A DNA stretch of 51,504 nt, from assembly GCA_016791475.1 (NCBI GenBank), contig JAEUWI010000052.1, positions 1 to 51,504 on the forward strand. Reading direction: 5' to 3'. This document shows positions 755-51,504 of the stretch, one piece after another. Every line of letters starts with the position of its first letter. The first letter of the stretch is position 1. The notes beneath the pieces are model-generated. The model ran no database searches and was not told the DNA's origin. It was given only the letters and a program-made list of their open reading frames with translations. The stretch comes from Candidatus Hydrogenedentota bacterium. Lineage in GTDB: Bacteria; Hydrogenedentota; Hydrogenedentia; Hydrogenedentales; JAEUWI01. The translations under genes were made by a program, and so were the position numbers.

Positions 755-3700
755 ATGGGAACGCTATCGGGAATCAATCAGTTCGTCTGGAAGGGCGTAG
801 TGCGGGGCGCCATCGTCGTGGCGGGCACTTGCCTTGGCGTCGTGTCGGCCTGGGCCAATGAGACCCCCCCGGTAATCGATCAGGGTGACTCCCCCCTTCT
901 CGTCACGATGGACGAGGACGGCGCACCGACGGCATTTGTGGCCCCGACGCTCAGCGCGGTTGATCCCCAAGCCGATCCCATCATCTGGACGGTGAGCGTG
1001 CCCGCGACCCATGGCACGGCGTCGGTGGGCGGGGTGGGTCCGTCTCCGCTCTCGTTCTCCTATGTGCCCGACTCGAATTACAACGGCGCGGACAGTTTCA
1101 CCGTGCAGGCTTCCGACGGCACCCATTCCGATACGATTGTAATTGAAGTGACGATCAACGCGGTGAATGACGCGCCCGAGTTCGTGGGACAACTCGAATT
1201 CGCGGGAAAATGGGGCAGCACGGGGTCAGCCGACGGCCAGCTCTCCAATCCGCGCCTGATCGCGCTGGACAGCGCGGGCAACGTGTACGTTCCCGATGCG
1301 CAGAATCACCGGATACAGGTGTTTGATGCGGACGGGACCTTCCTCCGGAAGTGGGGTACTTCGGGCACGGGTGACGGGCAGCTCAATCAGCCTTCGGGCG
1401 TCGCGGTGGACGCGTCCGACAACGTGTACGTGGCGGACTATCAAAACCACCGGATCCAGAAGTTCACTTCCGGCGGAAGTTACCTGCTCCAGTGGGGCTC
1501 CCTGGGTTCGGCAGACGGACAGTTGAGCAGCCCAATCGGCATCGCCGTTGGCCCCTCGGGGCAAGTGTACGTTGCCGACAGTGGGAACGACCGAATCCAG
1601 GAGTTTGATGCCAGCGGGAACTTCGTAAGGAAATGGGGGGCCGACGGCACTGCCGATGGCGAGTTCCAAACTATTTTTGGAATTGCCGTCGATTCCCTGG
1701 GGAACGTGTACGTGCCCGATATTAGTCGTAGCGACCTGCAGGTCTTTGATGCGAACGGAACTTTTCTGCGCAAGTGGGGCCAGTCGGGTTCGGGTGACGG
1801 TGATTTTTCCGCCCCGTGGGGTGTCGCGGCGGACTCGGATGACCGAATTTATGTCGCGGAGTCTGGAAACAGGCGCGTGCAAATTTTCGAGTCGGACGGG
1901 ACCTTCGTCCAGAAATTTGGGAGCTCCGGCAGCGGCGACGGGCAATTCACTACCCCTTTTGCCATCGCTGTTGCATCGACGGGCCGGATCTATGTTGGCG
2001 ATCACAGCGGCAATCGCATTCAATATTTCGATACCTCGACTATCGGCGCGTCTGTCGCGGTATCCATGTCGGAGGACGGGAACCCGACGCCGTTTGCCTT
2101 GACCCTCAACGCGCTGGATGTCGATGCCGATACAATCACCTGGGCGATATCGAGCGACGCCACGAATGGCGTCGCGGCGGTATCCGGCACGGGCACGGAG
2201 AAGACAGTCGCCTACACGCCCATTGGCAATTTCAACGGCGTGGACAGTTTTGATGTGCAAATCAGCGATGGCCTGCTCACGGATACGGTTACGGTAAACG
2301 TAACCGTCGATCCGCAACAGGATCCGGTCGTCATTGACCAGGGCGCCGGCCCGCTGACGGTGACGATGGACGAGGACGGTGTGCCAACCGCCTTTGTCGC
2401 GCCCACGGTGTCGGCGACGGATGTCGACACGGTTGACACGCTGACGTGGTCCGTCAGTTCCCCCGCGTCCCACGGCACGGCGACGGTGAGCGGCACGGGC
2501 GTTTCACCTTCCACATTTACCTACGCGCCCGATGCGAACTTCAACGGCTCGGATGCGTTTACGGTTGAAGTGAGCGACGGCACGGATGCGGACACCATAG
2601 TTGTTGAAGTGACGATCGGCCCGGAAAACGACGCGCCGGAATTTCTGGGCGCCATCGGCTTCGATATCCGCTGGGGCGCGCCAGGTACTGGAAACGGCGA
2701 GTTGAACGAGCCAGCCCAACTCGCGGTGGACGCCTCGAACAACGTCTATGTCGCCGACTCGGCCAACCATCGCGTGGTGGTCTTCGACGCGAATGGGAAT
2801 TTCTTGCGCACCTGGGGTTCCGTCGGCACGGCCGATGGACAGTTCACGAACCCAATGGGTATTGATGTGGACGCCGCCGGTTACGTCTACGTGGCGGAGA
2901 ACTCGGGCAACCGCGTGCAGAAGTTCGACGCGAACGGCAATTTCGTTCTCAAGTTCGGCGAAGTGGGCACGGATCCGGATCAATTTCAGGGGCCGAGCGA
3001 TATCGCGGTGGGTGCTTCGGGCCATATCTATGTGGCGGATATCAGTTACAGCCGAATTCAGAAATTCGACGCCACGGGCGCGCACGTGACCACCTGGGGC
3101 ACCTTTGGAACGGGCGATGGCGAATTGCAGAACCCGAGCGCGATCACGCTGGACGGTGCCGAGAATGTGTATGTCACGGACCGATTGAACCACCGCGTCC
3201 AGGTATTCACGTCAACGGGCACTTTCGTGCGGGCTTTCGGCTCGAACGGAACGTTGAACGGTCAGTTCAGTTCGCCCTACGGAATCGATTTCGGTCCGGA
3301 CGGGTTTCTCTATGTGTCGGACAGCAACAACCGTCGGGTGCAGGTGTTCACCACCACCGGCGAATTCGTGAGCACCTTCGGTTCTCAGGGTACCGCGGAC
3401 GGCCAGTTCAGCTATCCCTTCGGCATCGCCGTTGGCGGTAACGGAACGATCTTCATCGCCGATCTCGTCGGCGCCATGATCCACCGCTTCTCGCGCGCGG
3501 ACGCATCGACTGTTAGCGTGACCATGGATGAAGACGGCACGCCGACGCCCTTCAGCCTCACCTTGAACGGTGTGGACGTGGATGCCGACACGATAAACTG
3601 GAGCATCGGCACCCAGGCGACTCACGGCGAAGCGTCCGTCAGCGGCACGGGCGCCAGCCAGCCGGTAAGCTATACGCCGGACGCGGACTACAACGGTTCG

Positions 3701-6700
3701 GATAGCTTCGTGGTGTCCATTTCCGACGGTAATGGCGGTACGGATACGCTTACGGTCAACGTGACGGTCACTCCGCAACAGGACACACCGGTTATTTCCC
3801 CAGACCCGGTCAATGTGACGATGGACGAAGACGGTTCGCCGATGGCCTGGGCACCTCCCGCGGTGTCGGCGATGGACGCGGACGGCGACGAAATCACCTG
3901 GACGCTGGACTTCGATCCCCAGTACGGCACGGCGACGGTAAGCGGCACGGGGGCTTCCCCCGAAGTGCTGGACTATGTACCGGATTCGGATTCCGCTGGA
4001 ACGGATATTTTCGGTATTCGCGCTTCCGACGGCAACGGCAACCACGACACGGTCTACGTGGTGGTCACCGTCACCCCGCAGAACGACGCGCCGGTCATCG
4101 ATCAGGGCGACGGCCCGCTGACGGTAACGATGGACGAGGAAGGCACGCCCACGGCGTGGGCCGCCCCGACTCTGAGCGCTGCGGATATCGACGGCCCCAC
4201 CAACTCGCCGGGAAGCAATGAGCAGGGCGATCCCACGCCCCAGGATCCGGTCGGCGATGAGCTTTCCTGGTCGGTGTTGACCCAGGCCTCCCATGGCACG
4301 GCGACCGTGTCGGGCGACGGGGCTTCACCGCTGACCTTCGACTATGTACCCGAGGGCAATTTCTTTGGTTCGGACAGTTTCGTGGTGCAGGTGTCGGACG
4401 GCAACGGCGGCACGGACACGATCCAGATTGACGTGACGGTAAACAATACCCACGACGCGCCGGTGATCGAACAGGCGGATCCGCTGGCGGTGACGATGGA
4501 CGAAGACGGCGCGCCTATTGCGTGGGACGCCCCCACGGTGATGGCCCAGAATCCGGACAGCGTGGCGCTCTCGTGGTCCGTGCTGACCCCGGCGACGAAT
4601 GGCGTGGCGACGGTATCCGGCGGCGTCTTGTCTCCGTCGGTGTTCGACTATGCGCCGAATGCCAACTTTAACGGTTCCGACAGCTTTGTCATCCAGGTGT
4701 CGGACGGCGATGGTGGCACGGACGAGATCACGGTGAACGTGACGATCAATCCGGTGAATGACGCGCCCGCCATCACGCAGACGGGGCCGATCACGGTGAC
4801 CATGGACGAAGACGGCACGCCGGTGGCCTTTGTGGCGCCGGCGGTCGACGCGACCGATGCGGACGGCGACCCGATCACCTGGAGCCTCGCGGTTTCCGCT
4901 TCGAACGGCGTTGCCACGGCCGACGGTGAGGGCGCGAGTCCGACGGAGTTGACCTACACACCCGCCGCGAACTTCAACGGTTCGGACAGCTTCACGCTGG
5001 AAGCGAGCGACGGCGAGGCGTCGTCGCAGATCGCGGTGCAGGTCACGGTGACCGCGCACAATGACGGGCCGGTTCTGGCCCTGAACTCGGGCGTGACCGT
5101 GGACGAAGGCGGCGTGGCCACGCTGGACGCGGGCATGCTCGAAACGAGTGACGTGGACGACGGGGCTTCGGATCTGACCTACACGGTCACAGCGGCTCCG
5201 GCCAACGGCGTTCTGGCGTTGATCTCGGAGCCTGAAACCTCGGTGACCACCTTCACCCAGGCGGATTTGAACGCCGCCCAGTTGATCTACACGCACAATG
5301 GCGGTGAGACCACGTCCGACAGCTTTGCGTTCAGCGCGGCGGACGGTGGAGAGGATGGCGCGGTGCCGGTGTCGGGTGTTTTCGAGATATCCGTAACGCC
5401 CGTCAACGACGCGCCGGTGCTCGACGCCATAGGCGACCGTGAAGTGGCCGAAGGGGCCACCATCACGTTCGGCGTGTCCGCAAGCGATCCCGAAGGCGAC
5501 ACACTGACCTTTGACGCGGCGGCGTTGCCCTCGGGCGCGAGCTTCGATCAGGAAACCGCGACCTTCACATGGACTCCGGCCTTCGACCAGTCCGGCGTTT
5601 ACGCGGGCGTGCTGTTCCGTGTGACGGACGATGGCGAGGGACCGTTGACCGATACCGAGACCATCAGCATCACCGTGGGCGATGTAAACCGCCCGCCGGC
5701 GCTGGACGAATTGTCGAATCAGGAAGTGCCGGAGGGCGCCACGCTGGCGTTCACGGTGTCGGCAATCGATCCCGACGGGGACGGGCTGAGCTTCGGCGCG
5801 GCCAATCTGCCCGAGGGCGCCAGCTTCGACCCGGAAACCGCAACCTTTACCTGGACACCGGGCTTTGAAGATGCGGGAGTCTATGCCGACGTGATCTTCA
5901 CGGTGACGGACGACGGCGCGCCGGCCGAGGGGGATTCTCAGAGCATCACGATCACCGTGGGTGACGTGAACCGCATGCCCGAGCTCGCCGCGATTGGCAA
6001 CCGCCAGGTGGACGAGGGGGGCGCATTGACCTTCCTGGTGACGGCGAGCGACGCGGATGGCGACACTCTGGTGTTCGGCGCGGAGAACCTGCCGGATGGC
6101 GCAACGTTCGATACGGAGACCCAGACATTCCAGTGGAATCCGGCCTTCAGCGACGGCGGAAGCCATGAAGTCACCTTCACCGTGACGGATGATGGTGAAC
6201 CCGCGCGGGGGGATAGCGAAACCATCACGATCACCGTGGGCGACGTAAACCGCGCGCCGGCGTTGAATCCCGTGGGCAATCGCGAGGTCACCGAGGGTGA
6301 CGCGCTCCAGATCGTCTTGACGGGTAGCGACCCGGATGGCGATACACTCGCCTTCGGCGTGGAGCATCTGCCCGAGGGCGCCCAGTTTGATTCCGAAACC
6401 AGGACACTGAATTGGGCGACTGTGACCGGTGATGCCGGAACGTACACGGTGACATTTGTACTCACGGACTCGGGGACACCACCCTTGTCCGACGACGAAG
6501 CCATCACCGTAACCGTGGTGGCTGGCGCCGGTGAAGGTGAGGGTGAAGGCGAAGGTGAAGGCGAAGGTGAAGGTGAAGGTGAAGGCGAAGGTGAAGGCGA
6601 AGGCGAAGGTGAAGGTGAAGGTGAAGGTGAAGGTGAAGGTGAAGGCGAAGGCGAAGGCGAAGGCGAAGGCGAAGGCGAAGGCGAAGGCGAAGGCGAAGGC

Positions 6701-7027
6701 GAAGGAAACCTGGCGACTTCGCTGCTGGAAAATTTCATGCGTGCCGACGCGAACAACGACGGTCTGATATCACGGGAAGAGTCCGCGCTGCTCTTTCCAG
6801 AACTTACCACAAGCCAGTTCGACGCGCTCGATTTGGACGGCGATGGCTTTCTGTCGCGCAATGAAATCCGCCAGTCGCAACCGGGCGGCTGCTATGGACC
6901 TGGTGCGCAGGCGGAACTGTTCATCGCGGCGTTGGGCGTTTTCCTGCTCAATTGTTTCGAGACCCTATTGAGGTTGCCCGGTCAGATCCTGGAGGTCCTC
7001 TACGGTGGCGCCACGAGGAACGAGTGA
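755..7027 (+). CDS. Giant exported surface protein: cadherin-like repeats, two six-repeat NHL propellers, (Glu-Gly)n, EF-hands, GGC tail
   Basis: This 2090-residue protein starts at an ATG 6 nt after AGGAG and has a signal peptide (cleavage probably after AWA, residue 34). Order of parts: a cadherin/tandem-95-like domain (38-137); six NHL repeats (about 146-430); two cadherin-like domains (433-630); six more NHL repeats (about 630-916); five cadherin-like domains (about 920-1440), recognisable by VTMDEDG at the start and FNGSDSF near the end of each; one CSPG4-type repeat (about 1441-1555); four putative-Ig domains ending TVGDVNR (about 1556-1925); 29 Glu-Gly dipeptides (1927-1984); two EF-hands (DANNDGLISREE, DLDGDGFLSRNE); then GGC and a hydrophobic tail with RLPGQIL. 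Six NHL repeats fit one closed beta-propeller, so two propellers are likely. The domain types point to adhesion or glycan/protein binding at the surface; no enzyme domain is visible. Confidence 0.93.
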   Translation: MGTLSGINQFVWKGVVRGAIVVAGTCLGVVSAWANETPPVIDQGDSPLLVTMDEDGAPTAFVAPTLSAVDPQADPIIWTVSVPATHGTASVGGVGPSPLSFSYVPDSNYNGADSFTVQASDGTHSDTIVIEVTINAVNDAPEFVGQLEFAGKWGSTGSADGQLSNPRLIALDSAGNVYVPDAQNHRIQVFDADGTFLRKWGTSGTGDGQLNQPSGVAVDASDNVYVADYQNHRIQKFTSGGSYLLQWGSLGSADGQLSSPIGIAVGPSGQVYVADSGNDRIQEFDASGNFVRKWGADGTADGEFQTIFGIAVDSLGNVYVPDISRSDLQVFDANGTFLRKWGQSGSGDGDFSAPWGVAADSDDRIYVAESGNRRVQIFESDGTFVQKFGSSGSGDGQFTTPFAIAVASTGRIYVGDHSGNRIQYFDTSTIGASVAVSMSEDGNPTPFALTLNALDVDADTITWAISSDATNGVAAVSGTGTEKTVAYTPIGNFNGVDSFDVQISDGLLTDTVTVNVTVDPQQDPVVIDQGAGPLTVTMDEDGVPTAFVAPTVSATDVDTVDTLTWSVSSPASHGTATVSGTGVSPSTFTYAPDANFNGSDAFTVEVSDGTDADTIVVEVTIGPENDAPEFLGAIGFDIRWGAPGTGNGELNEPAQLAVDASNNVYVADSANHRVVVFDANGNFLRTWGSVGTADGQFTNPMGIDVDAAGYVYVAENSGNRVQKFDANGNFVLKFGEVGTDPDQFQGPSDIAVGASGHIYVADISYSRIQKFDATGAHVTTWGTFGTGDGELQNPSAITLDGAENVYVTDRLNHRVQVFTSTGTFVRAFGSNGTLNGQFSSPYGIDFGPDGFLYVSDSNNRRVQVFTTTGEFVSTFGSQGTADGQFSYPFGIAVGGNGTIFIADLVGAMIHRFSRADASTVSVTMDEDGTPTPFSLTLNGVDVDADTINWSIGTQATHGEASVSGTGASQPVSYTPDADYNGSDSFVVSISDGNGGTDTLTVNVTVTPQQDTPVISPDPVNVTMDEDGSPMAWAPPAVSAMDADGDEITWTLDFDPQYGTATVSGTGASPEVLDYVPDSDSAGTDIFGIRASDGNGNHDTVYVVVTVTPQNDAPVIDQGDGPLTVTMDEEGTPTAWAAPTLSAADIDGPTNSPGSNEQGDPTPQDPVGDELSWSVLTQASHGTATVSGDGASPLTFDYVPEGNFFGSDSFVVQVSDGNGGTDTIQIDVTVNNTHDAPVIEQADPLAVTMDEDGAPIAWDAPTVMAQNPDSVALSWSVLTPATNGVATVSGGVLSPSVFDYAPNANFNGSDSFVIQVSDGDGGTDEITVNVTINPVNDAPAITQTGPITVTMDEDGTPVAFVAPAVDATDADGDPITWSLAVSASNGVATADGEGASPTELTYTPAANFNGSDSFTLEASDGEASSQIAVQVTVTAHNDGPVLALNSGVTVDEGGVATLDAGMLETSDVDDGASDLTYTVTAAPANGVLALISEPETSVTTFTQADLNAAQLIYTHNGGETTSDSFAFSAADGGEDGAVPVSGVFEISVTPVNDAPVLDAIGDREVAEGATITFGVSASDPEGDTLTFDAAALPSGASFDQETATFTWTPAFDQSGVYAGVLFRVTDDGEGPLTDTETISITVGDVNRPPALDELSNQEVPEGATLAFTVSAIDPDGDGLSFGAANLPEGASFDPETATFTWTPGFEDAGVYADVIFTVTDDGAPAEGDSQSITITVGDVNRMPELAAIGNRQVDEGGALTFLVTASDADGDTLVFGAENLPDGATFDTETQTFQWNPAFSDGGSHEVTFTVTDDGEPARGDSETITITVGDVNRAPALNPVGNREVTEGDALQIVLTGSDPDGDTLAFGVEHLPEGAQFDSETRTLNWATVTGDAGTYTVTFVLTDSGTPPLSDDEAITVTVVAGAGEGEGEGEGEGEGEGEGEGEGEGEGEGEGEGEGEGEGEGEGEGEGEGEGEGEGEGEGEGNLATSLLENFMRADANNDGLISREESALLFPELTTSQFDALDLDGDGFLSRNEIRQSQPGGCYGPGAQAELFIAALGVFLLNCFETLLRLPGQILEVLYGGATRNE
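6533..6706 (+). repeat. Hexanucleotide tandem repeat encoding (Glu-Gly)29
   Basis: Twenty-nine in-frame gaaggt/gaaggc units lie between the last Ig-like domain and the EF-hands. The 5' half is rich in ggt and the 3' half is pure ggc, as expected if blocks were duplicated separately. It parallels the tract at 1-120. Confidence 0.95.
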
Positions 7028-9294: not shown

Positions 9295-9411
9295 ATGGGT
9301 CTTATGGGTCTTATGGGTCTTATGGGTCTTATGGGTCTTATGGGTCTTATGGGTCTTGGGGGTCTTGGGGGTCTTGGGGGTCTTGGGGGTCTTGGGGGTC
9401 TTGGGGGTCTT
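9295..9411. repeat. 9-bp tandem repeat array (13 units)
   Basis: Seven perfect copies of atgggtctt (9295-9357) are followed by six perfect copies of gggggtctt (9358-9411). The sudden change of variant suggests recent stepwise expansion. It is noncoding, between a PilZ and a cbiX gene. Related arrays are at 28627, 42926 and 51427. Confidence 0.95.
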
Positions 9412-9463
9412 GGGGGCGTATGGGGTGGCGGGCTGAGATTTTCGCACCGACCCATAGGAGCCG

Positions 9464-28626: not shown

Positions 28627-28689
28627 ATGGGTCTTATGGGTCTTATGGGTCTTATGGGTCTTATGGGGCTTATGGGGCTTATGGGGCTT
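28627..28689. repeat. 9-bp tandem repeat array (7 units)
   Basis: Four copies of atgggtctt and then three of atggggctt, in the same orientation as the array at 9295. It lies between the MFS and ABC transporter genes. Confidence 0.95.
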
Positions 28690-28747
28690 ATGGGCGCGGA
28701 AAACTAGTATGGCAGTATGGTGAGCAACGATAACAGCAATGCATGCG

Positions 28748-43853: not shown

Positions 43854-44496
43854 GTACCACCGTGGCCCGGAATCGTTAGCGGTCGGCTCCCCATTGAGCG
43901 GAACGGGGCCATTGGAAACGAGGTGTAATTATGGGGCCTGCGCCATGCCCGGTGCAACCTGATACGCATTTGATACAGAATGCGAAAACCCCAGAACATA
44001 CGGGCGGGCTTGGGGGAGGGGCGGTTCCGTTCCGTATATCCTGGGGCTAAAACTGTTCGGCCATCCGGCCGGTCTTTCGCTTCTTAAGGTGCAGGGATGA
44101 CAGCGCAATCATCCCTGCGAAGCTCCTCGTGGTTTCACCCTCTGAAGTTGAATCCAACATGAAGCTGTCGGTCCAATAACCAGACTCATGCCAGAAACCG
44201 GTGGCCCGTATAAGTTATTTTAATTAGCGGCTTTATGGATTTTTACCGGGGTGGAGTTATCTTCCGTCGATTGGAGTCTGTATGATAATCGGACGGCCCG
44301 AAGTGTATGATTTGCGGACACCCCATTTTGCGATAGAATACTTGTGTTTTTTTCGCCGATCTGCGTTAATATGAGTGGCCCCGAAGAGGCGGTGAAACAC
44401 CGCTGAAGTGGGATCCGTCATCGACGGTCGGGGTTCAGTGGTCGGGACTGAACTCTCCTTTCCCGTGCAGGGCTTTGGGTGGAGCGGCTGTTCGTT
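43854..44496. other. Long intergenic region between lpxA and the FHA regulator
   Basis: No convincing gene is found in this 640-nt stretch. It holds a 10-bp hairpin with an 8-nt loop (44091-44100 with 44109-44118), an AT-richer section (about 44160-44370) and a possible promoter (44312-44339). I see no tRNA or riboswitch. Confidence 0.5.
44312..44339 (+). promoter_or_regulatory. Possible promoter of the FHA-sigma54 activator gene
   Basis: TTGCGG (44312-44317), 16 bp, TAGAAT (44334-44339). The leader would be about 150 nt. Confidence 0.35.
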
Positions 44497-46302
44497 ATGC
44501 AGATTATGATTACGGCGAAGGCAGGTTATACGCGGGGGGCATCGTGGATGCTCGATGCAAAATCTCTGGTGATCGGGCGCTCTTATCGCTGCGATATCGT
44601 GGTGGATGATGGCACGGTCTCCCGGCAGCACTGCCGAATTCAGAAAGTGCAGGAGGGGGTGCGTCTGGAGGATCTGGGCAGCCGGAATCCGGCCCTCGTG
44701 GACGGTGTGCCCCAGGGGGATGTCGTGCTCAAAGTGGGCGACGAATTCAGCGTGGGTCGGGCCATCTTCCTCATCACCGCCGTCGCCGAATCGGGCGCGC
44801 CGTCGGGCCGCGGGCCGACGGATTCGGATACCATCTCCCTCGATCTCAAAGACCTTGGGTTGGATGCCATCGAGCAGGGCAAGTCCTGGCCGGGCACCTT
44901 TACGGACTACGTACTCCTTTTCCGATTTACCCGCAGTTGCAGCCTCCTCAAGTCCGAAGTGGCCCTCTCCAACCAGATGCGGGAGGTCATCACCCAGCGT
45001 TTCGCCGCCGGGCGGGTCTACATCCTTCAGGAGGACGAAGGGCGCTGGCCCTTCATGGAACTGTTGGAAATTACCGACGAATCTCTGATTCGTCATGAGG
45101 CCCTGGAGAAGGCCGTGGACGAGCGCCGCGCCCTCTCTTTCGCGCTGCCCCACCGCGACGGCACCTCCGGGCATGTCTTCTTCGCCCCGCTTTTCTATGC
45201 GGACCATTGCGAAGGGCTCGCCGTGTTGACCATGGAGGGGATGGGGCCCGACGGAGACCGCGAGGCGGCCCTTCGCCTCTTTTCCGCCCTGTGTGAACTG
45301 GTGGGGCCCTACCTCCACGCGGCGCGGGAACACGACCGGCTCGTCCAGCTCAATCACCGCCTCACCAGTACCGACGGTTTTGCCCGCATGCCCCTGGTGG
45401 GTCAGAGCCGGGTAATGAAAGGGCTCCGCACCCAAGTCTACGAGGCGGCCGCCACCCCTATGAACGTCCTGATTACCGGGGAAACGGGCACCGGCAAGGA
45501 ACTGATCGCCCGCGCCATCCACCGCAACAGTATCCGGGCGTCCAAGCCCTATATCATCCTCAATTGCGCCGCGATCCCCGCCGAACTCTTTGAGAGCGAG
45601 CTCTTCGGCTACGAGCGCGGTGCCTTTACCGGAGCCCAGGGCTCCAAAAAAGGACTGCTCTCACTGGCGAACTCGGGCATACTCTTCCTCGATGAAGTGG
45701 GCGATCTCAGCCTGGAGAACCAGGCCCGAATTCTCCGTGTACTCGAGCAGGGGACCTACCGCAGGCTCGGCGCGGCCCAGGAAGAGCAGGTGGACGTCCG
45801 ATTTATCGCCGCCACCAACCGCCCCGTGGACGACAAGGGCTTTCGCTCGGATCTCTATCACCGTCTGGCCGGCTTCACCCTCCATGCGCCGCCCCTGCGC
45901 GAGCGCGCCGAGGACATTCCGCTGCTTGCCCAGCATTTTATGGATGGATTGGCCGCCCAGGATGCCCGCCTGATCCGGACCCTCTCCCAGGAGGCGGCCG
46001 AAGTGCTCAAACACTATCATTGGCCTGGAAACGTGCGCCAGCTTAAGAACACGGTCGAGCGTATCGCGCACCGTAGCAACACGCCCCTGATTTCGACGGA
46101 GGACATCTGGCGCGACGGCCAGATCAGCAAGACGCCCGAGAAGGAGGCTGGCCCGCTGCTTTCCCTGACCGAGATGGAGCGGGAGCATGTGCTCAAGGTG
46201 CTCCGTACCTGTGGCGGCAATCGGGCGAAGGCGGCCCGCATTCTGGGGATCAGCCGGAGCACATTGTACCTGAAGCTGGCGGAATATGGGGTGGATGAGT
46301 GA
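44497..46302 (+). CDS. FHA-GAF sigma54-dependent transcriptional activator
   Basis: The product (601 aa from the ATG at 44497) has an N-terminal FHA domain (VIGRSYRCDIVV, SRQHCRI), which reads phospho-Thr peptides, a GAF-like domain (about 165-290), a sigma54 AAA+ domain with Walker A GETGTGKE, the GAFTGA loop that touches sigma54 (GYERGAFTGAQ), Walker B ILFLDEVGDL and the Arg-finger region, and a Fis-type helix-turn-helix (NRAKAARILGISRSTLYLKL). The start is uncertain: GGAG lies 12 nt before the ATG, and a GTG at 44479 with AGGG upstream is an alternative. It lies just before the pseudopilin operon; control of that operon is plausible, but its promoter looks sigma-70-like. Confidence 0.92.
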   Translation: MQIMITAKAGYTRGASWMLDAKSLVIGRSYRCDIVVDDGTVSRQHCRIQKVQEGVRLEDLGSRNPALVDGVPQGDVVLKVGDEFSVGRAIFLITAVAESGAPSGRGPTDSDTISLDLKDLGLDAIEQGKSWPGTFTDYVLLFRFTRSCSLLKSEVALSNQMREVITQRFAAGRVYILQEDEGRWPFMELLEITDESLIRHEALEKAVDERRALSFALPHRDGTSGHVFFAPLFYADHCEGLAVLTMEGMGPDGDREAALRLFSALCELVGPYLHAAREHDRLVQLNHRLTSTDGFARMPLVGQSRVMKGLRTQVYEAAATPMNVLITGETGTGKELIARAIHRNSIRASKPYIILNCAAIPAELFESELFGYERGAFTGAQGSKKGLLSLANSGILFLDEVGDLSLENQARILRVLEQGTYRRLGAAQEEQVDVRFIAATNRPVDDKGFRSDLYHRLAGFTLHAPPLRERAEDIPLLAQHFMDGLAAQDARLIRTLSQEAAEVLKHYHWPGNVRQLKNTVERIAHRSNTPLISTEDIWRDGQISKTPEKEAGPLLSLTEMEREHVLKVLRTCGGNRAKAARILGISRSTLYLKLAEYGVDE

Positions 46303-46468
46303 CCCGTTTCAGTGCGCTTTCGCGCGTTGCGGGGGGGCCGGGCTGTTGCTTTTGAGTCGGTTCGGGTTGTCGCATTATGGGAATATTTGTTCAGGAATGA
46401 CTAATAAATCGATATAATTCCATTTTTCGTCAATGATTTATGGGGCTGATTTCCAGTTTTTTTTAGTG

Positions 46469-46498
46469 TTGACATATCGGCTGAATTGTGCTTAATAT
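46469..46498 (+). promoter_or_regulatory. Sigma-70-type promoter of the pseudopilin operon
   Basis: A perfect TTGACA (46469-46474) and TTAATA/TAATAT (46492-46498) at 17-18 bp spacing sit in a markedly AT-rich stretch (46370-46500). The leader is about 95 nt to the ATG at 46601. Confidence 0.55.
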
Positions 46499-46600
46499 AC
46501 CCCTCGCCCCAAGTTTATTGAGGTGCTTGCTGCCCATCTGCGTCCCCAGGCATGTCAGTGACACATCCGTGGTGCTGACCGCCGAGCAGGAAGGAGTTTC

Positions 46601-47143
46601 ATGCAAATCGTTCGTCGGCACTCCAGTGATCCGCCCCCCCGATCCCGTCGGGCGGGATTTACGCTCATTGAGCTCATTGTGTCGCTTTTCGTGATCAGTG
46701 TTGCGACCACCATTTTCATGCACCTCTACGCGACGAGCATGGACCTGGGTAAACTTTCCCGGAACCGGCAGATCGCCGTCTCCATCGCCGAAGAACAGCT
46801 CGGTTTGCTCATGCAGAACCCGGAACGTTTTGTCTGGGACAAGGACAACCCCGATGCGGCCGGACTCTTCCGTGTTCGCGCCAGCGCCGACGATCCCCGC
46901 GCCGGTGTGGAGGCGCAGTTGCCCTCCTCCACGCTCCCCGATGAAGGCGCCTACCAGCGCGAGACCACCGTGTTCGACCAGTTTCGCTGGAAAGCGGTCG
47001 GCAAGCTGGGCGCGCGCGGACTGTTCTACGAGGTTACGGTGGACGTGTCCTGGGTGCAAAGTGGAAAAAATGAAAGCGTCACGCTGACGGGTGCTGTGCC
47101 CCGCGGCAAGGTGGAACCCAACTGGACGGAGGCGCCGAAATGA
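46601..47143 (+). CDS. Prepilin-type protein, GspI/PilV-like minor pseudopilin
   Basis: The 180-aa product starts at an ATG with AAGGAG upstream. A basic 19-residue leader ends in Gly and is followed by FTLIELIVSLFVISVA, the class III prepilin signal (PilD cleavage after Gly, Glu at position 5). The rest is a short globular domain with the SIAEEQLGLL helix typical of GspI/PilV. It is the first gene of a four-gene run; its stop overlaps the next start (ATGA). Confidence 0.88.
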   Translation: MQIVRRHSSDPPPRSRRAGFTLIELIVSLFVISVATTIFMHLYATSMDLGKLSRNRQIAVSIAEEQLGLLMQNPERFVWDKDNPDAAGLFRVRASADDPRAGVEAQLPSSTLPDEGAYQRETTVFDQFRWKAVGKLGARGLFYEVTVDVSWVQSGKNESVTLTGAVPRGKVEPNWTEAPK

Positions 47144-47775
47144 CCAGGCCCAGGAAGCGCTCCGGATTTACTCTTTTTGAACTCCTCGTGGTCTTGTCGG
47201 TCATGTCCGTGGTTTCGACCATCGGTGTGACCGCCTACAGTCGGGTTACCGGCGTATGGCGCGTGAGCGCCCTGCGCATGGAGATGGCCTCCAACGCCGA
47301 GTACATCTTTGAGACCATCCGCCGCGACATCGAGAATGTCCCCTCGTCGCTCCGCACCGGCCAGTCCATCCGCGGGACGGACGTACTGAATGAAGAAGTC
47401 AATTATCGCCGGGTGCCGCTGGACAACGACACCTTGGTGCTCCCCGTCCTGCAATTGGGCAGCACCGGCCTTTCCGAGCGGATTGCGGTGAAGTATCACA
47501 TCCAGCGGAACGGCACCGACCACATTCTCGCCCGGACCGTGGGTCCGATGAGCGCCGGCGACCCGAATGGTTCCAGCCTGATGGTGAGCGATGCGGATCG
47601 GGCCAATGTGCTCTCCATGGATGTTCAGTACCTGAGCGCGGGCGTCTGGCAGCCTGTGTGGACCGGGCCGACCCATCCCGAAGCTATCCGCGTGTCGCTG
47701 ACCCTGGCGGGCAAGGGACAGCGCGAAGTGGAGCAGATTACCCGAAGCGCAGTGTTCCCGATCCGGGTGAAGTGA
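47140..47775 (+). CDS. Prepilin-type protein, GspJ-like minor pseudopilin
   Basis: The 211-aa product has the prepilin signal KRSG/FTLFELLVVLSVMSVV right at its N-terminus, with Glu at position 5 of the mature form. The mature part (RMEMASNAEYIFETIRRDIE..., then beta strands) agrees with GspJ/PilW. Its order, after an I-like and before a K-like gene, supports GspJ. In type II secretion, I, J and K form the tip of the pseudopilus. Confidence 0.87.
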   Translation: MTRPRKRSGFTLFELLVVLSVMSVVSTIGVTAYSRVTGVWRVSALRMEMASNAEYIFETIRRDIENVPSSLRTGQSIRGTDVLNEEVNYRRVPLDNDTLVLPVLQLGSTGLSERIAVKYHIQRNGTDHILARTVGPMSAGDPNGSSLMVSDADRANVLSMDVQYLSAGVWQPVWTGPTHPEAIRVSLTLAGKGQREVEQITRSAVFPIRVK

Positions 47776-47783
47776 GGCCGACC

Positions 47784-48887
47784 ATGCGGACAACGACGAC
47801 GACTCCCATCCAGAAATCGCGCAACGAGCGCGGTGCCGCGCTGATTTTTGCCCTGTCCATGCTGGCCATTTTCGCCTTCATGGGCGTGGCGTACGTGAAG
47901 TATATGAGCCTGAATCTGGTCGAGTCCGATCTGGACTTGCGCAAGGCCCGGGCGCGCCAGTTGGCCGTGTCGGGCATCCAGATCGCGGCCTCCGGACTGC
48001 GCCAGGAAGTGCTGGACGCCAACTATGAGAAACTGCGGGGTGTCCCGGTCTCTTTTGACCTTGCCACCTACAATTCGGTCAGCGACGGCGATGCGGGTAT
48101 TGTGGCCGAGCCCATGAACGTGACTCGGGTAGCCCGTACGACGGTGACGGTGTTCGAAGAGGGGGGGCGGGTCAATCTGAACCACGCTCCGGCAAGCGCC
48201 CTGCAGAAGCTGCTGGGGGTGGACGGCGACACGGCGCGGAATATTGCCGCGAGCGTCCGCGGCGGACAGGGTTCCGACACGCAGTGGTTTCTCACGACGG
48301 ACGAGTTGTTTTCTCGGGGTCTGCTGACCAAAGCCCAGTACGATCTGATCGTGCCCGAATTGCTTACGACGACCTCGGTGGTCGATCACGCCAACCCGGC
48401 TGGTCACTTTAACGTGAACGGCGCGGAGGCGTCGTCCCTGGCCGCCATGCTCAATATCACGACGGAGCAGGCGCAGCAGGTCAAGGCCAAGGGACCCTTC
48501 GCCTCCATCGAAGCGCTCGGTCAGGCGGTCTCCGCCGTGACGGGCGCTCCGGCGGAATCGATCATGGCCGACACCGCACTGGGCTTGAAATCCCGTTGTT
48601 TCCGCGTAGTTAGCGAAGGGTTCTATGCCAAGGCATTGGATTCCGAACGTTATGAGGCGGCGGCGACGGAAGACGAGAAGAATCGGCTGCTCACGAATCG
48701 CACCACCAGCACCGTGGAAGCCGTACTCCAGTTCAACGATGATGGGACCTACGAGGTCATCTATTGGAACGCAAGCCCCGAAGACACCGCCCAGGTGGCT
48801 GGCGATTCCGAAACCGCGCCCGAGCGTGGCGGGGCCGCTCCGGAAGCGGAAGCCCCTGCGAACGGGGCCGGAAGCGTATCGTCATAA
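47784..48887 (+). CDS. gspK: GspK-like minor pseudopilin
   Basis: The 367-aa product starts at 47784 with GAGG 7 nt upstream. The N-terminal NERG/AALIFALSMLAIFAFMGV matches GspK, which lacks Glu at position 5. A large domain follows, with helix-hairpin-helix-like segments (VNLNHAPASALQKLLGVDGDTA; FNVNGAEASSLAAMLNI), as GspK has. The last 50 residues are Ala/Glu/Pro-rich. It lies 8 nt after the GspJ-like gene. Confidence 0.85.
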   Translation: MRTTTTTPIQKSRNERGAALIFALSMLAIFAFMGVAYVKYMSLNLVESDLDLRKARARQLAVSGIQIAASGLRQEVLDANYEKLRGVPVSFDLATYNSVSDGDAGIVAEPMNVTRVARTTVTVFEEGGRVNLNHAPASALQKLLGVDGDTARNIAASVRGGQGSDTQWFLTTDELFSRGLLTKAQYDLIVPELLTTTSVVDHANPAGHFNVNGAEASSLAAMLNITTEQAQQVKAKGPFASIEALGQAVSAVTGAPAESIMADTALGLKSRCFRVVSEGFYAKALDSERYEAAATEDEKNRLLTNRTTSTVEAVLQFNDDGTYEVIYWNASPEDTAQVAGDSETAPERGGAAPEAEAPANGAGSVSS

Positions 48888-48960
48888 CCTGTAACACGAT
48901 TTGTGCGGACTGCCTTTCGGGCAGTTTTCGCCGATAGGAACCAAGGGAGGAAGCCTTCTG

Positions 48961-50412
48961 ATGGCCGACGAAGCCGAAAACAGGGAAGAGACCACCGGAG
49001 CCGCGGACGACGCGGCGGCTGCAAAGAAGAAGCCGGTTGCCAAAAAAGCGCCCGCCAAGAAGGCGCCAGCGGCGAAACCGGTCGTGAAGGCGGAAGCGCC
49101 GAGGAAAGTCGCCTTGAAGAAACTCGATGTAAAGAGTCTCGCGGACGAGTTGAAAGCCCCGTCAGCGGCTGAAGCGCCGGCGGTCGAAGCCCCCGCCGCC
49201 AAGAATGCGCCGACGGCCGCAGCCGCAGCCGCACCGCGCCCTGTTGGCGTGGTGAAGGCCGTACCGGTGAAGCCCGCCGCAAAAGCACCCGCCGCGAAGG
49301 ATAACAAGCGAAGCCTCGCCGATTTCATGGGACCCGCCGCCCACGCCGTGACGACCGGCTACATCTCCGAGCGCCGGGTGATCGACTTCCTGCGCCAGCT
49401 CATCATGTTGCTCCGCGCCGGCACGCCCATCCTGCGTTCGCTCCAGACCCTGTCCAAGCGCACCTCCAGCGCGGGCACCCGGGCCTTGATTTCCGATATC
49501 ACCCAGTACGTGGAAGCGGGCAACCCCCTGTGGCAGGCCTTCGACCGTCACAATAAGTACTTCGACCGCGTTTTCGTGAACCTGATCAAGGCCAGCGAGG
49601 CGAGCGGTACCTTGGTGACCGTGCTTGGCCGCGTGGTGACGTATCGTTCCGAGCAGGCCATGATGCGCAAGCGCGTGCGCGGCGCCATGATCTATCCCGT
49701 GGTGCTCGTCATCGCGTGCGTCGGCGTCATGCTGCTGCTGACCAAGTTTGTAATTCCCGAATTCAAGGACATCTTCGAGAAGGCGGATATCCCCACCCCG
49801 CCGCTCACCCAGGGTATTTTCCGGGTGAGCGATTTCGTGGGCAACTATTGGTGGACACCCTTCCCCGTCATCCTGTTCCTTTTTGTCGCCTACAAGCTGG
49901 GCGTGAACAATTCCCCGCTGATGCGCTACTACGCCGATGCGATCAAGATCCGGATTCCGATCGTGGGCTCCATCATCAAGAAGAGCGCGCTGGTTGAACT
50001 GACCCGCACCCTCGCCCTGCTCATCCGCTCCGGCGTGCCCATGATGGCCACCCTCGAGCTTACCCGCTCGGCCATCACCAATCGCCGCATCGCGGATTGC
50101 CTCCAGGGCGTGCGTGATTCCATCGAGCGCGGCGGCGGCATGGAAGGTCCCCTGCGCAAGTCGGCCCCGGCCATTCCCCACGTGATGACCGACATGATTG
50201 TCACCGGCGAGGAATCCGGTAAAGTGGATGAAGTCTGCGAGCAGATCGCGGATATCTACGAGGAAGAGGTCGAAATCGAGACGCGCAGCCTCGGCGAAGC
50301 GCTCCAGCCGCTCTTTACCGTGATTGTCGGTATCGGCGTCATGATTCTCTTCGTGTCGCTCTTCCTGCCGCTCATCACGTCTCTCGACCAGTTGGCCGGC
50401 TCGGGCGTATAA
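48961..50412 (+). CDS. gspF: GspF/PilC-like inner membrane protein with histone-H1-like N-terminal extension
   Basis: The 483-aa product starts at 48961 with GGGAGG upstream. Residues about 15-125 are an Ala/Lys/Pro-rich stretch (KKKPVAKKAPAKKAPAAKP and similar), resembling histone H1 tails and not found in ordinary GspF. From about residue 140 there are two GspF repeats (FLRQLIMLLRAGTPILRSLQ; LTRTLALLIRSGVPMMATLE), each followed by the ES/EASG pattern, and three membrane helices (about 240-265, 295-320, 455-475). GspF links the ATPase to the pseudopilus base. No GspE, GspD or GspG is in the window. A strong terminator ends the operon. Confidence 0.9.
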   Translation: MADEAENREETTGAADDAAAAKKKPVAKKAPAKKAPAAKPVVKAEAPRKVALKKLDVKSLADELKAPSAAEAPAVEAPAAKNAPTAAAAAAPRPVGVVKAVPVKPAAKAPAAKDNKRSLADFMGPAAHAVTTGYISERRVIDFLRQLIMLLRAGTPILRSLQTLSKRTSSAGTRALISDITQYVEAGNPLWQAFDRHNKYFDRVFVNLIKASEASGTLVTVLGRVVTYRSEQAMMRKRVRGAMIYPVVLVIACVGVMLLLTKFVIPEFKDIFEKADIPTPPLTQGIFRVSDFVGNYWWTPFPVILFLFVAYKLGVNNSPLMRYYADAIKIRIPIVGSIIKKSALVELTRTLALLIRSGVPMMATLELTRSAITNRRIADCLQGVRDSIERGGGMEGPLRKSAPAIPHVMTDMIVTGEESGKVDEVCEQIADIYEEEVEIETRSLGEALQPLFTVIVGIGVMILFVSLFLPLITSLDQLAGSGV

Positions 50413-51426: not shown

Positions 51427-51504
51427 ATGGGTCTTTTGGGTCTTTTGGGTCTTTTGGGTCTTTTGGGTCTTTTGGGTCTTTTGGGTCTTTTGGGTCTTTT
51501 GGGT
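51427..51504. repeat. 9-bp tandem repeat array, running off the window end
   Basis: One atgggtctt and then nearly eight perfect ttgggtctt units, in the same orientation as the arrays at 9295 and 28627. It lies upstream of thiS. Confidence 0.95.

What the first reader, a model, noticed from the sequence alone, without database searches (positions are those of the whole stretch)
48961..49330. Histone-H1-like Lys/Ala/Pro extension on GspF
About 110 cytoplasmic residues rich in KKAPAKKAP-type motifs precede an ordinary GspF. Such tails bind nucleic acid or acidic proteins; on a secretion-platform protein this is unexpected. It could recruit the ATPase or tether the machine to the nucleoid.
Basis: partly seen in the sequence, partly recalled or inferred. 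Interest (0 to 1): 0.6.

Follow-up and report, generated by a model that had tools for sequence, protein, structure and literature searches.

The report
Secretion platform protein with lysine-rich tail
In a little-studied bacterial phylum, a membrane protein that builds secretion fibres has lost its usual folded front domain and carries instead a floppy, positively charged tail that in some lineages has grown to look like histone H1, probably to hold the machine onto a negatively charged partner.

Summary
The window's GspF-type platform protein (ATG 48961, Shine-Dalgarno GGAGG) starts with about 135 residues, predicted disordered, with a K/A/P-rich basic core. The clade is Hydrogenedentota. 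Orthologues occur in 58 of 68 genomes of the order (38 of 38 good ones); all 58 readable rows have a 46-161-residue leader, and 53 of 58 leaders hold a stretch of net +4 or more. The H1-like form is in 10 of 58, including 4 of 4 of the window's genus, and changed several times. It is not an extension of an "ordinary GspF": the leader stands where canonical GspF/PilC has its folded beta-beta-alpha-beta N-domain, which canonical paralogues in the same genome keep. The gene closes a conserved operon of pseudopilin-like genes (I-J-K-F) without ATPase or secretin; a fuller T2SS locus with a canonical GspF lies elsewhere. Best reading: the basic leader replaces the non-essential N-domain as an electrostatic tether, most likely to anionic lipid and/or an ATPase supplied in trans. 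Nucleoid binding (PhaF/AlgP-like) is possible but untested. New variant of a known kind.

The parts
48946..48950 (+). Shine-Dalgarno GGAGG of the platform gene
   Evidence: sequence; a Shine-Dalgarno-like site precedes the chosen start in all 58 orthologues scored (the start rule favours ATG with a Shine-Dalgarno, so this is partly by construction)
48961..49365 (+). N-terminal leader, residues 1-135, predicted disordered, in place of the canonical N-domain
   Evidence: AlphaFold pLDDT 39-64 per 10-residue block over residues 1-130; outside the T2SSF match, and the GspF profile match starts at residue 128
48961..49017 (+). acidic stretch of the leader, residues 1-19, net -6
49018..49134 (+). 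histone-H1-like K/A/P block, residues 20-58, net +12
49117..49152 (+). short motif KKLDVKSLADEL, residues 53-64, kept as KK[LI]DVK.LA[DE].L in the four genus members; residues 57-64 are the only helix predicted within the first 110 residues
49246..49320 (+). second basic stretch, residues 96-120, net +5
49366..50412 (+). platform core (Cyto1, TM, Cyto2), residues 136-483 and stop
   Evidence: PF00482 two stretches, 174.9 bits; pLDDT mostly above 90; PDB profile matches to PilC and GspF domains
46601..47143 (+). pseudopilin-like gene, named GspI here by position and N_methyl motif
   Evidence: PF07963; conserved order
47140..47775 (+). pseudopilin-like gene, named GspJ here by position and N_methyl motif
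   Evidence: PF07963; conserved order
47784..48887 (+). GspK-like gene (ORF open from 47658; likely start 47784)
   Evidence: HHH_3 match only; conserved order; name inferred

Best explanation
This is a GspF/PilC-superfamily platform protein of a type-4-filament machine in which, at or before the last common ancestor of the sampled Hydrogenedentota, the folded N-domain was replaced by a disordered basic leader. Shown by calculation: the replacement, its presence throughout the order, loose purifying selection on it, and several separate changes to or from a K/A/P-rich form. Inferred: the leader does the N-domain's helper job, acting as a flexible multivalent electrostatic tether at the cytoplasmic face that holds the platform on anionic lipid head groups and/or helps it catch its ATPase, which the operon does not encode. 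H1-like expansion would raise the valence of that tether.
For: 58 of 58 readable orthologues carry a leader; 53 of 58 have a 25-residue stretch of net +4 or more. None of 58 shows the [YF].[YF].[AV] N-domain signature in its leader. The canonical GspF of the same genome (L003) is predicted beta-beta-alpha-beta at residues 3-46, as described for PulF; the window protein has no strand at all. NCBIfam GspF aligns from profile position 53 in the window protein but from 1 in L003. Of 24 loci from other phyla, 22 keep the N-domain, 1 is cut inside it, 1 lacks it (by eye). Tail dN/dS was 0.16-0.48 in 16 of the 18 pairs where it could be computed. PMC10790770 (passages): PulF without its N-domain still works, less efficiently; the N-domain and linker contact anionic lipids through basic residues in simulations. 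A basic cluster also sits in the linker of the PilC-type paralogues (maximum +5).
Against: No binding was tested. Tail dN/dS exceeds the core's in nearly all pairs, and 2 of 18 pairs (both in one genus) exceed 1. 5 of 58 leaders are hardly basic. The leaders of the window's genus are polyampholytes with an acidic start, which is not ideal for lipid binding. A disordered tail is not obviously a substitute for a folded domain.
Confidence: 0.45

Rival explanations
1. The leader binds a specific protein partner: it recruits the right ATPase in trans, through the basic block and/or the short conserved helix, as a specificity tag.
For: No ATPase gene recurs beside I-J-K-F while the genome holds 19 matches to T2SSE and 14 GspF-like places, so pairing must be selective. 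An ATPase gene without a neighbouring platform gene, beside a dnaN-like gene in the window genome and in G003 and G037, occurs in 50 of 68 genomes of the order, 35 of 38 good ones. Genus members share KK[LI]DVK.LA[DE].L.
Against: The stretch after the basic block differs between families (alignment). No covariation or complex was tested. 3 of 38 good genomes, all with the platform protein, lack that ATPase at the cut-off. The core of GspF is thought to fit the ATPase by itself (PMC10790770, abstract).
Confidence: 0.22
2. The H1-like tail binds DNA and tethers the platform to the nucleoid, as the tails of PhaF and AlgP are thought to do for storage granules.
For: Composition matches: up to 0.95 K+A+P in a 40-residue window in L009. 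Precedent in PhaF and AlgP (PMC3574117, PMC9239181, passages read). One orthologue (L068) weakly matches the H1-like nucleoprotein HC2 profile, 20.1 bits against a cut-off of 40.
Against: Only 10 of 58 orthologues have the H1-like form. No tandem repeat under the window's tail, no HC2 match, and an acidic start.
Confidence: 0.15
3. Relaxed drift: once the non-essential N-domain was lost, the leader became a low-complexity remnant whose only need is to be soluble and non-hydrophobic; the lysines mean little.
For: Faster evolution than the core in most pairs; length 46-161; 5 of 58 barely basic; 2 of 18 pairs above 1. The PulF N-domain is dispensable (PMC10790770, passages).
Against: 16 of 18 pairs show dN/dS at or below 0.48. 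Basic character kept in 53 of 58 rows spread over 11 family codes. The K/A/P form changed at least 3 times on well-supported branches.
Confidence: 0.15

Closest known systems
GspF / PulF / EpsF, platform protein of type II secretion (TIGR02120, PF00482)
   Same: Cyto1-TM-Cyto2-TM core; profile match to solved GspF and PilC domains; sits beside pseudopilin-like genes
   Different: Folded N-domain absent, basic disordered leader instead; scores 255 against the GspF cut-off of 424; no ATPase or secretin gene recurs beside it
ComGB, competence pseudopilus platform protein (NF041012)
   Same: Its 332-position profile aligns to the core from position 4 on, so it too seems to do without the N-domain
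   Different: Scores 128 against a cut-off of 240; that ComGB lacks a basic leader is recalled, not tested
KPAA tails of PhaF and AlgP
   Same: Disordered, rich in K, P, A; attached to a protein that sits on another cell body (PMC3574117, PMC9239181, passages read)
   Different: C-terminal there; long tandem repeats there, none here; DNA binding reported there, untested here
PulF N-domain and linker as lipid-contacting helper
   Same: Same place in the chain; basic residues at the cytoplasmic membrane surface; helper role (inferred here)
   Different: Folded beta-beta-alpha-beta there, disordered here

Membership tests
T2SSF domain superfamily (PF00482) | T2SSF repeats above the gathering score | tested here: met
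   174.9 bits against 25.2, two stretches
GspF equivalog (TIGR02120) | whole-protein score at or above the curated cut-off | tested here: not met
   255 against 424, profile 53-396 of 401; the canonical paralogue L003 scores 440.1
GspF/PilC with canonical N-domain | folded beta-beta-alpha-beta N-domain | tested here: not met
   no strand, and pLDDT 39-64 per block over residues 1-130; control L003 shows E-E-H-E at residues 3-46
Type II secretion system (complete locus) | secretin, ATPase, platform and pseudopilins in one locus | tested here: not met
   only I-J-K-F recurs around this gene; the fuller locus with canonical GspF is elsewhere (most gene names there by position)
Histone H1-like nucleoprotein HC2 (PF07382) | match above the gathering score | tested here: not met
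   no match for the window protein at E <= 0.001; L068 20.1 bits against 40
PhaF/AlgP-type tail | long tandem KPAA-type repeats | tested here: not met
   no tandem repeat under 48961-49365; composition only
PhaF/AlgP-type tail | DNA binding | not testable with these tools
   needs a binding assay

The most novel reading that the evidence does not exclude
A phylum-wide I-J-K-F pseudopilus module without its own ATPase gene, whose platform protein swapped its folded N-domain for an H1-like tail that grips the nucleoid, so that a membrane fibre machine is physically coupled to the chromosome, for positioning or DNA uptake.
Probability: 0.1. Interest if true: 0.8.

Novelty: new variant of a known kind. 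Interest (0 to 1): 0.42.

Why it matters
The role of the N-domain of GspF/PilC is unclear: it is dispensable in PulF yet raises efficiency (PMC10790770, passages). An order-wide replacement of it by a disordered basic leader is a natural experiment on what that domain must supply. The conserved stand-alone I-J-K-F operon also points to a filament or secretion module in Hydrogenedentota that I did not find described; the two searches for this phylum with secretion or pilus terms listed no paper whose title or abstract start concerns it.

Tried and rejected
Wrong start: rejected. Strain-specific oddity: rejected. Slippage or tandem-repeat artefact: no repeat found there. A second protein of the genome with the same tail: none convincing. 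Frameshift or chimera at the junction: a leader is in frame with the core in all 58 rows. A regulator upstream (44479-46302) as part of the module: kept in only 2 of 53 wider loci at high identity, plus one weaker match, so not part of it. First scan of genome contigs with the single protein found nothing. A class-wide search returned the same 68 genomes as the order.

Rows dropped: L069 (gene cut by the contig end) left 58 of 59 places; alignment A1 used 54 of 58 (L049, L054, L064, L067 left out as truncated); the start of L066 was moved by hand to match L065. The 25 stretches compared were the window plus 24 of 53 wider loci, chosen for long flanks; one search then looked at all 53: 42 hold I, J and K, 4 K alone, 1 I and J, 1 I alone, 5 none (L123, one of the 53, is a Planctomycetota locus; some others are short on one side). 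The dN/dS pairs (22) were picked by hand among relatives and are not independent; 4 gave no value.

Full report
Observation. ORF 48961-50412 (+) encodes 483 residues. The start ATG follows AAGGGAGGAA. Pfam T2SSF matches in two stretches, 174.9 bits, the best starting at residue 143. Residues 1-135 lie before the core. They consist of an acidic start (1-19, net -6), a K/A/P block (20-58, net +12), a mixed stretch (59-95, net -1) and a second basic stretch (96-120, net +5). Among 85 ORFs of at least 100 aa from the window and five other stretches of this genome the block is the top K/A/P segment; the ORF picks are mechanical and may include false ones.

Conservation. With the whole protein, 58 of 68 genomes of the order have a match at E <= 1e-70, and 38 of 38 genomes at least 90% complete and at most 5% contaminated. 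Record titles of matching contigs name Candidatus Hydrogenedentota, Hydrogenedentes or Hydrogenedens for most. I read the N-terminus of 58 of the 59 places. All have a leader of 46-161 residues before the core, often beginning MAT/MAD/MAN, then a KRVRR- or KKK-like basic patch, then a more acidic or hydrophobic stretch. 53 of 58 have a 25-residue window of net +4 or more; L023, L024, L025, L043 and L048 do not. A strict [KR][KR]x[KR] pattern is in only 26 of 58 within 45 residues, so what is kept is basic character rather than one exact motif.

The H1-like form. Defined as a 40-residue window with at least 8 K and at least 20 K+A+P, it is present in 10 of 58: four of four in the window's genus, G001 of the same family, four of five in family code f5, and G045 in f11. 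On a core-only tree it needs 5 changes, at least 3 on well-supported branches (quick tree, SH-aLRT only; these may be gains or losses). I read the H1-like tail as a repeated elaboration of an older, shorter basic leader.

Selection. NG86 estimates on 22 hand-picked pairs gave 18 usable tail values: 16 between 0.16 and 0.48, and two of 1.53 and 1.46 within one genus, where the tail's synonymous divergence is low. Core values were lower in nearly all pairs. The leader looks translated and constrained, more loosely than the core. Alignments of low-complexity tails are uncertain.

Domain replacement. NCBIfam's GspF model aligns to the window protein only from profile position 53 and scores 255, under the cut-off of 424; the canonical GspF of the same genome (L003) aligns from position 1 and scores 440.1. 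AlphaFold on 54 orthologues gives pLDDT 39-64 for the blocks of residues 1-130, one short helix at 57-64 and two more at 119-131, a core mostly above 90, and no strand anywhere. The control L003 is predicted E3-10, E16-22, H26-35, E38-46 at pLDDT about 80, then a disordered linker, then the core (only 10 sequences, mean pLDDT 78.1). This is the beta-beta-alpha-beta N-domain described for PulF (PMC10790770, passages read). Of 24 loci outside Hydrogenedentota, 22 show an N-domain of this type by eye, L127 is cut within it, and L148 (Peregrinibacteria) lacks it.

Surroundings. The gene is last in a run of pseudopilin-like genes that I name I, J and K by position; Pfam supports only N_methyl for I and J and HHH_3 for K. 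The order is the same in 25 of 25 compared stretches; over all 53 wider loci 42 hold I, J and K. No ATPase, secretin or major pseudopilin gene recurs beside it. The genome has 19 T2SSE-type matches and 14 GspF-type places, among them a locus with secretin, ATPase, canonical GspF and pseudopilin-like genes on contig C5. An ATPase gene without a platform gene in the surrounding stretch, beside a gene that looks like dnaN by eye, was read in three genomes, with a further copy without that neighbour in G019; the ATPase is found in 50 of 68 genomes. It is a candidate partner by elimination only.

Mechanism. In PulF, deleting the N-domain leaves function but lowers efficiency, and in simulations the N-domain and linker rest on anionic lipids through basic residues (PMC10790770, passages). 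The PilC-type paralogues here also have a basic linker. The simplest reading is that the leader keeps the electrostatic role without the fold. ATPase recruitment, DNA binding as in PhaF and AlgP (PMC3574117, PMC9239181, passages), and drift are rivals that sequence alone cannot separate.

Novelty. I found no description of this leader in searches on GspF with GspE/GspL, platform protein N-terminal extensions, GspF/PilC with cardiolipin or disorder, H1-like lysine-rich tails, or Hydrogenedentota with secretion or pili. I saw listings, and passages of three papers. Only openly licensed papers are held in that library.

Noticed in passing
9297-9416, 28627-28694, 51428-51504: The same 9-base minisatellite (TGGGTCTTN) occurs at three separate places and the contig ends inside one; 17 matches to a three-unit pattern against 0 expected.
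   Followed up: partly
44479-46302: FHA-domain sigma-54 activator directly upstream of the operon; kept there only in two close relatives among 53 wider loci.
   Followed up: partly
46303-46600: The gap before the first pseudopilin-like gene holds a TTGACA...TAATAT-like pair, a sigma-70-type promoter by eye; a sigma-54 pattern was met only with two mismatches.
   Followed up: no
6530-6705: GGTGAAGGCGAA tandem array inside a 2091-codon ORF (755-7027).
   Followed up: no
L216:6320-8299, L217:5541-7481: GspE/PilB-like ATPases with MshEN domains but no neighbouring platform gene, beside a dnaN-like and an FtsY-like gene respectively (neighbours named by eye); the first is in 50 of 68 genomes of the order.
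   Followed up: partly
L148: A Peregrinibacteria platform protein that also seems to lack the canonical N-domain.
   Followed up: no
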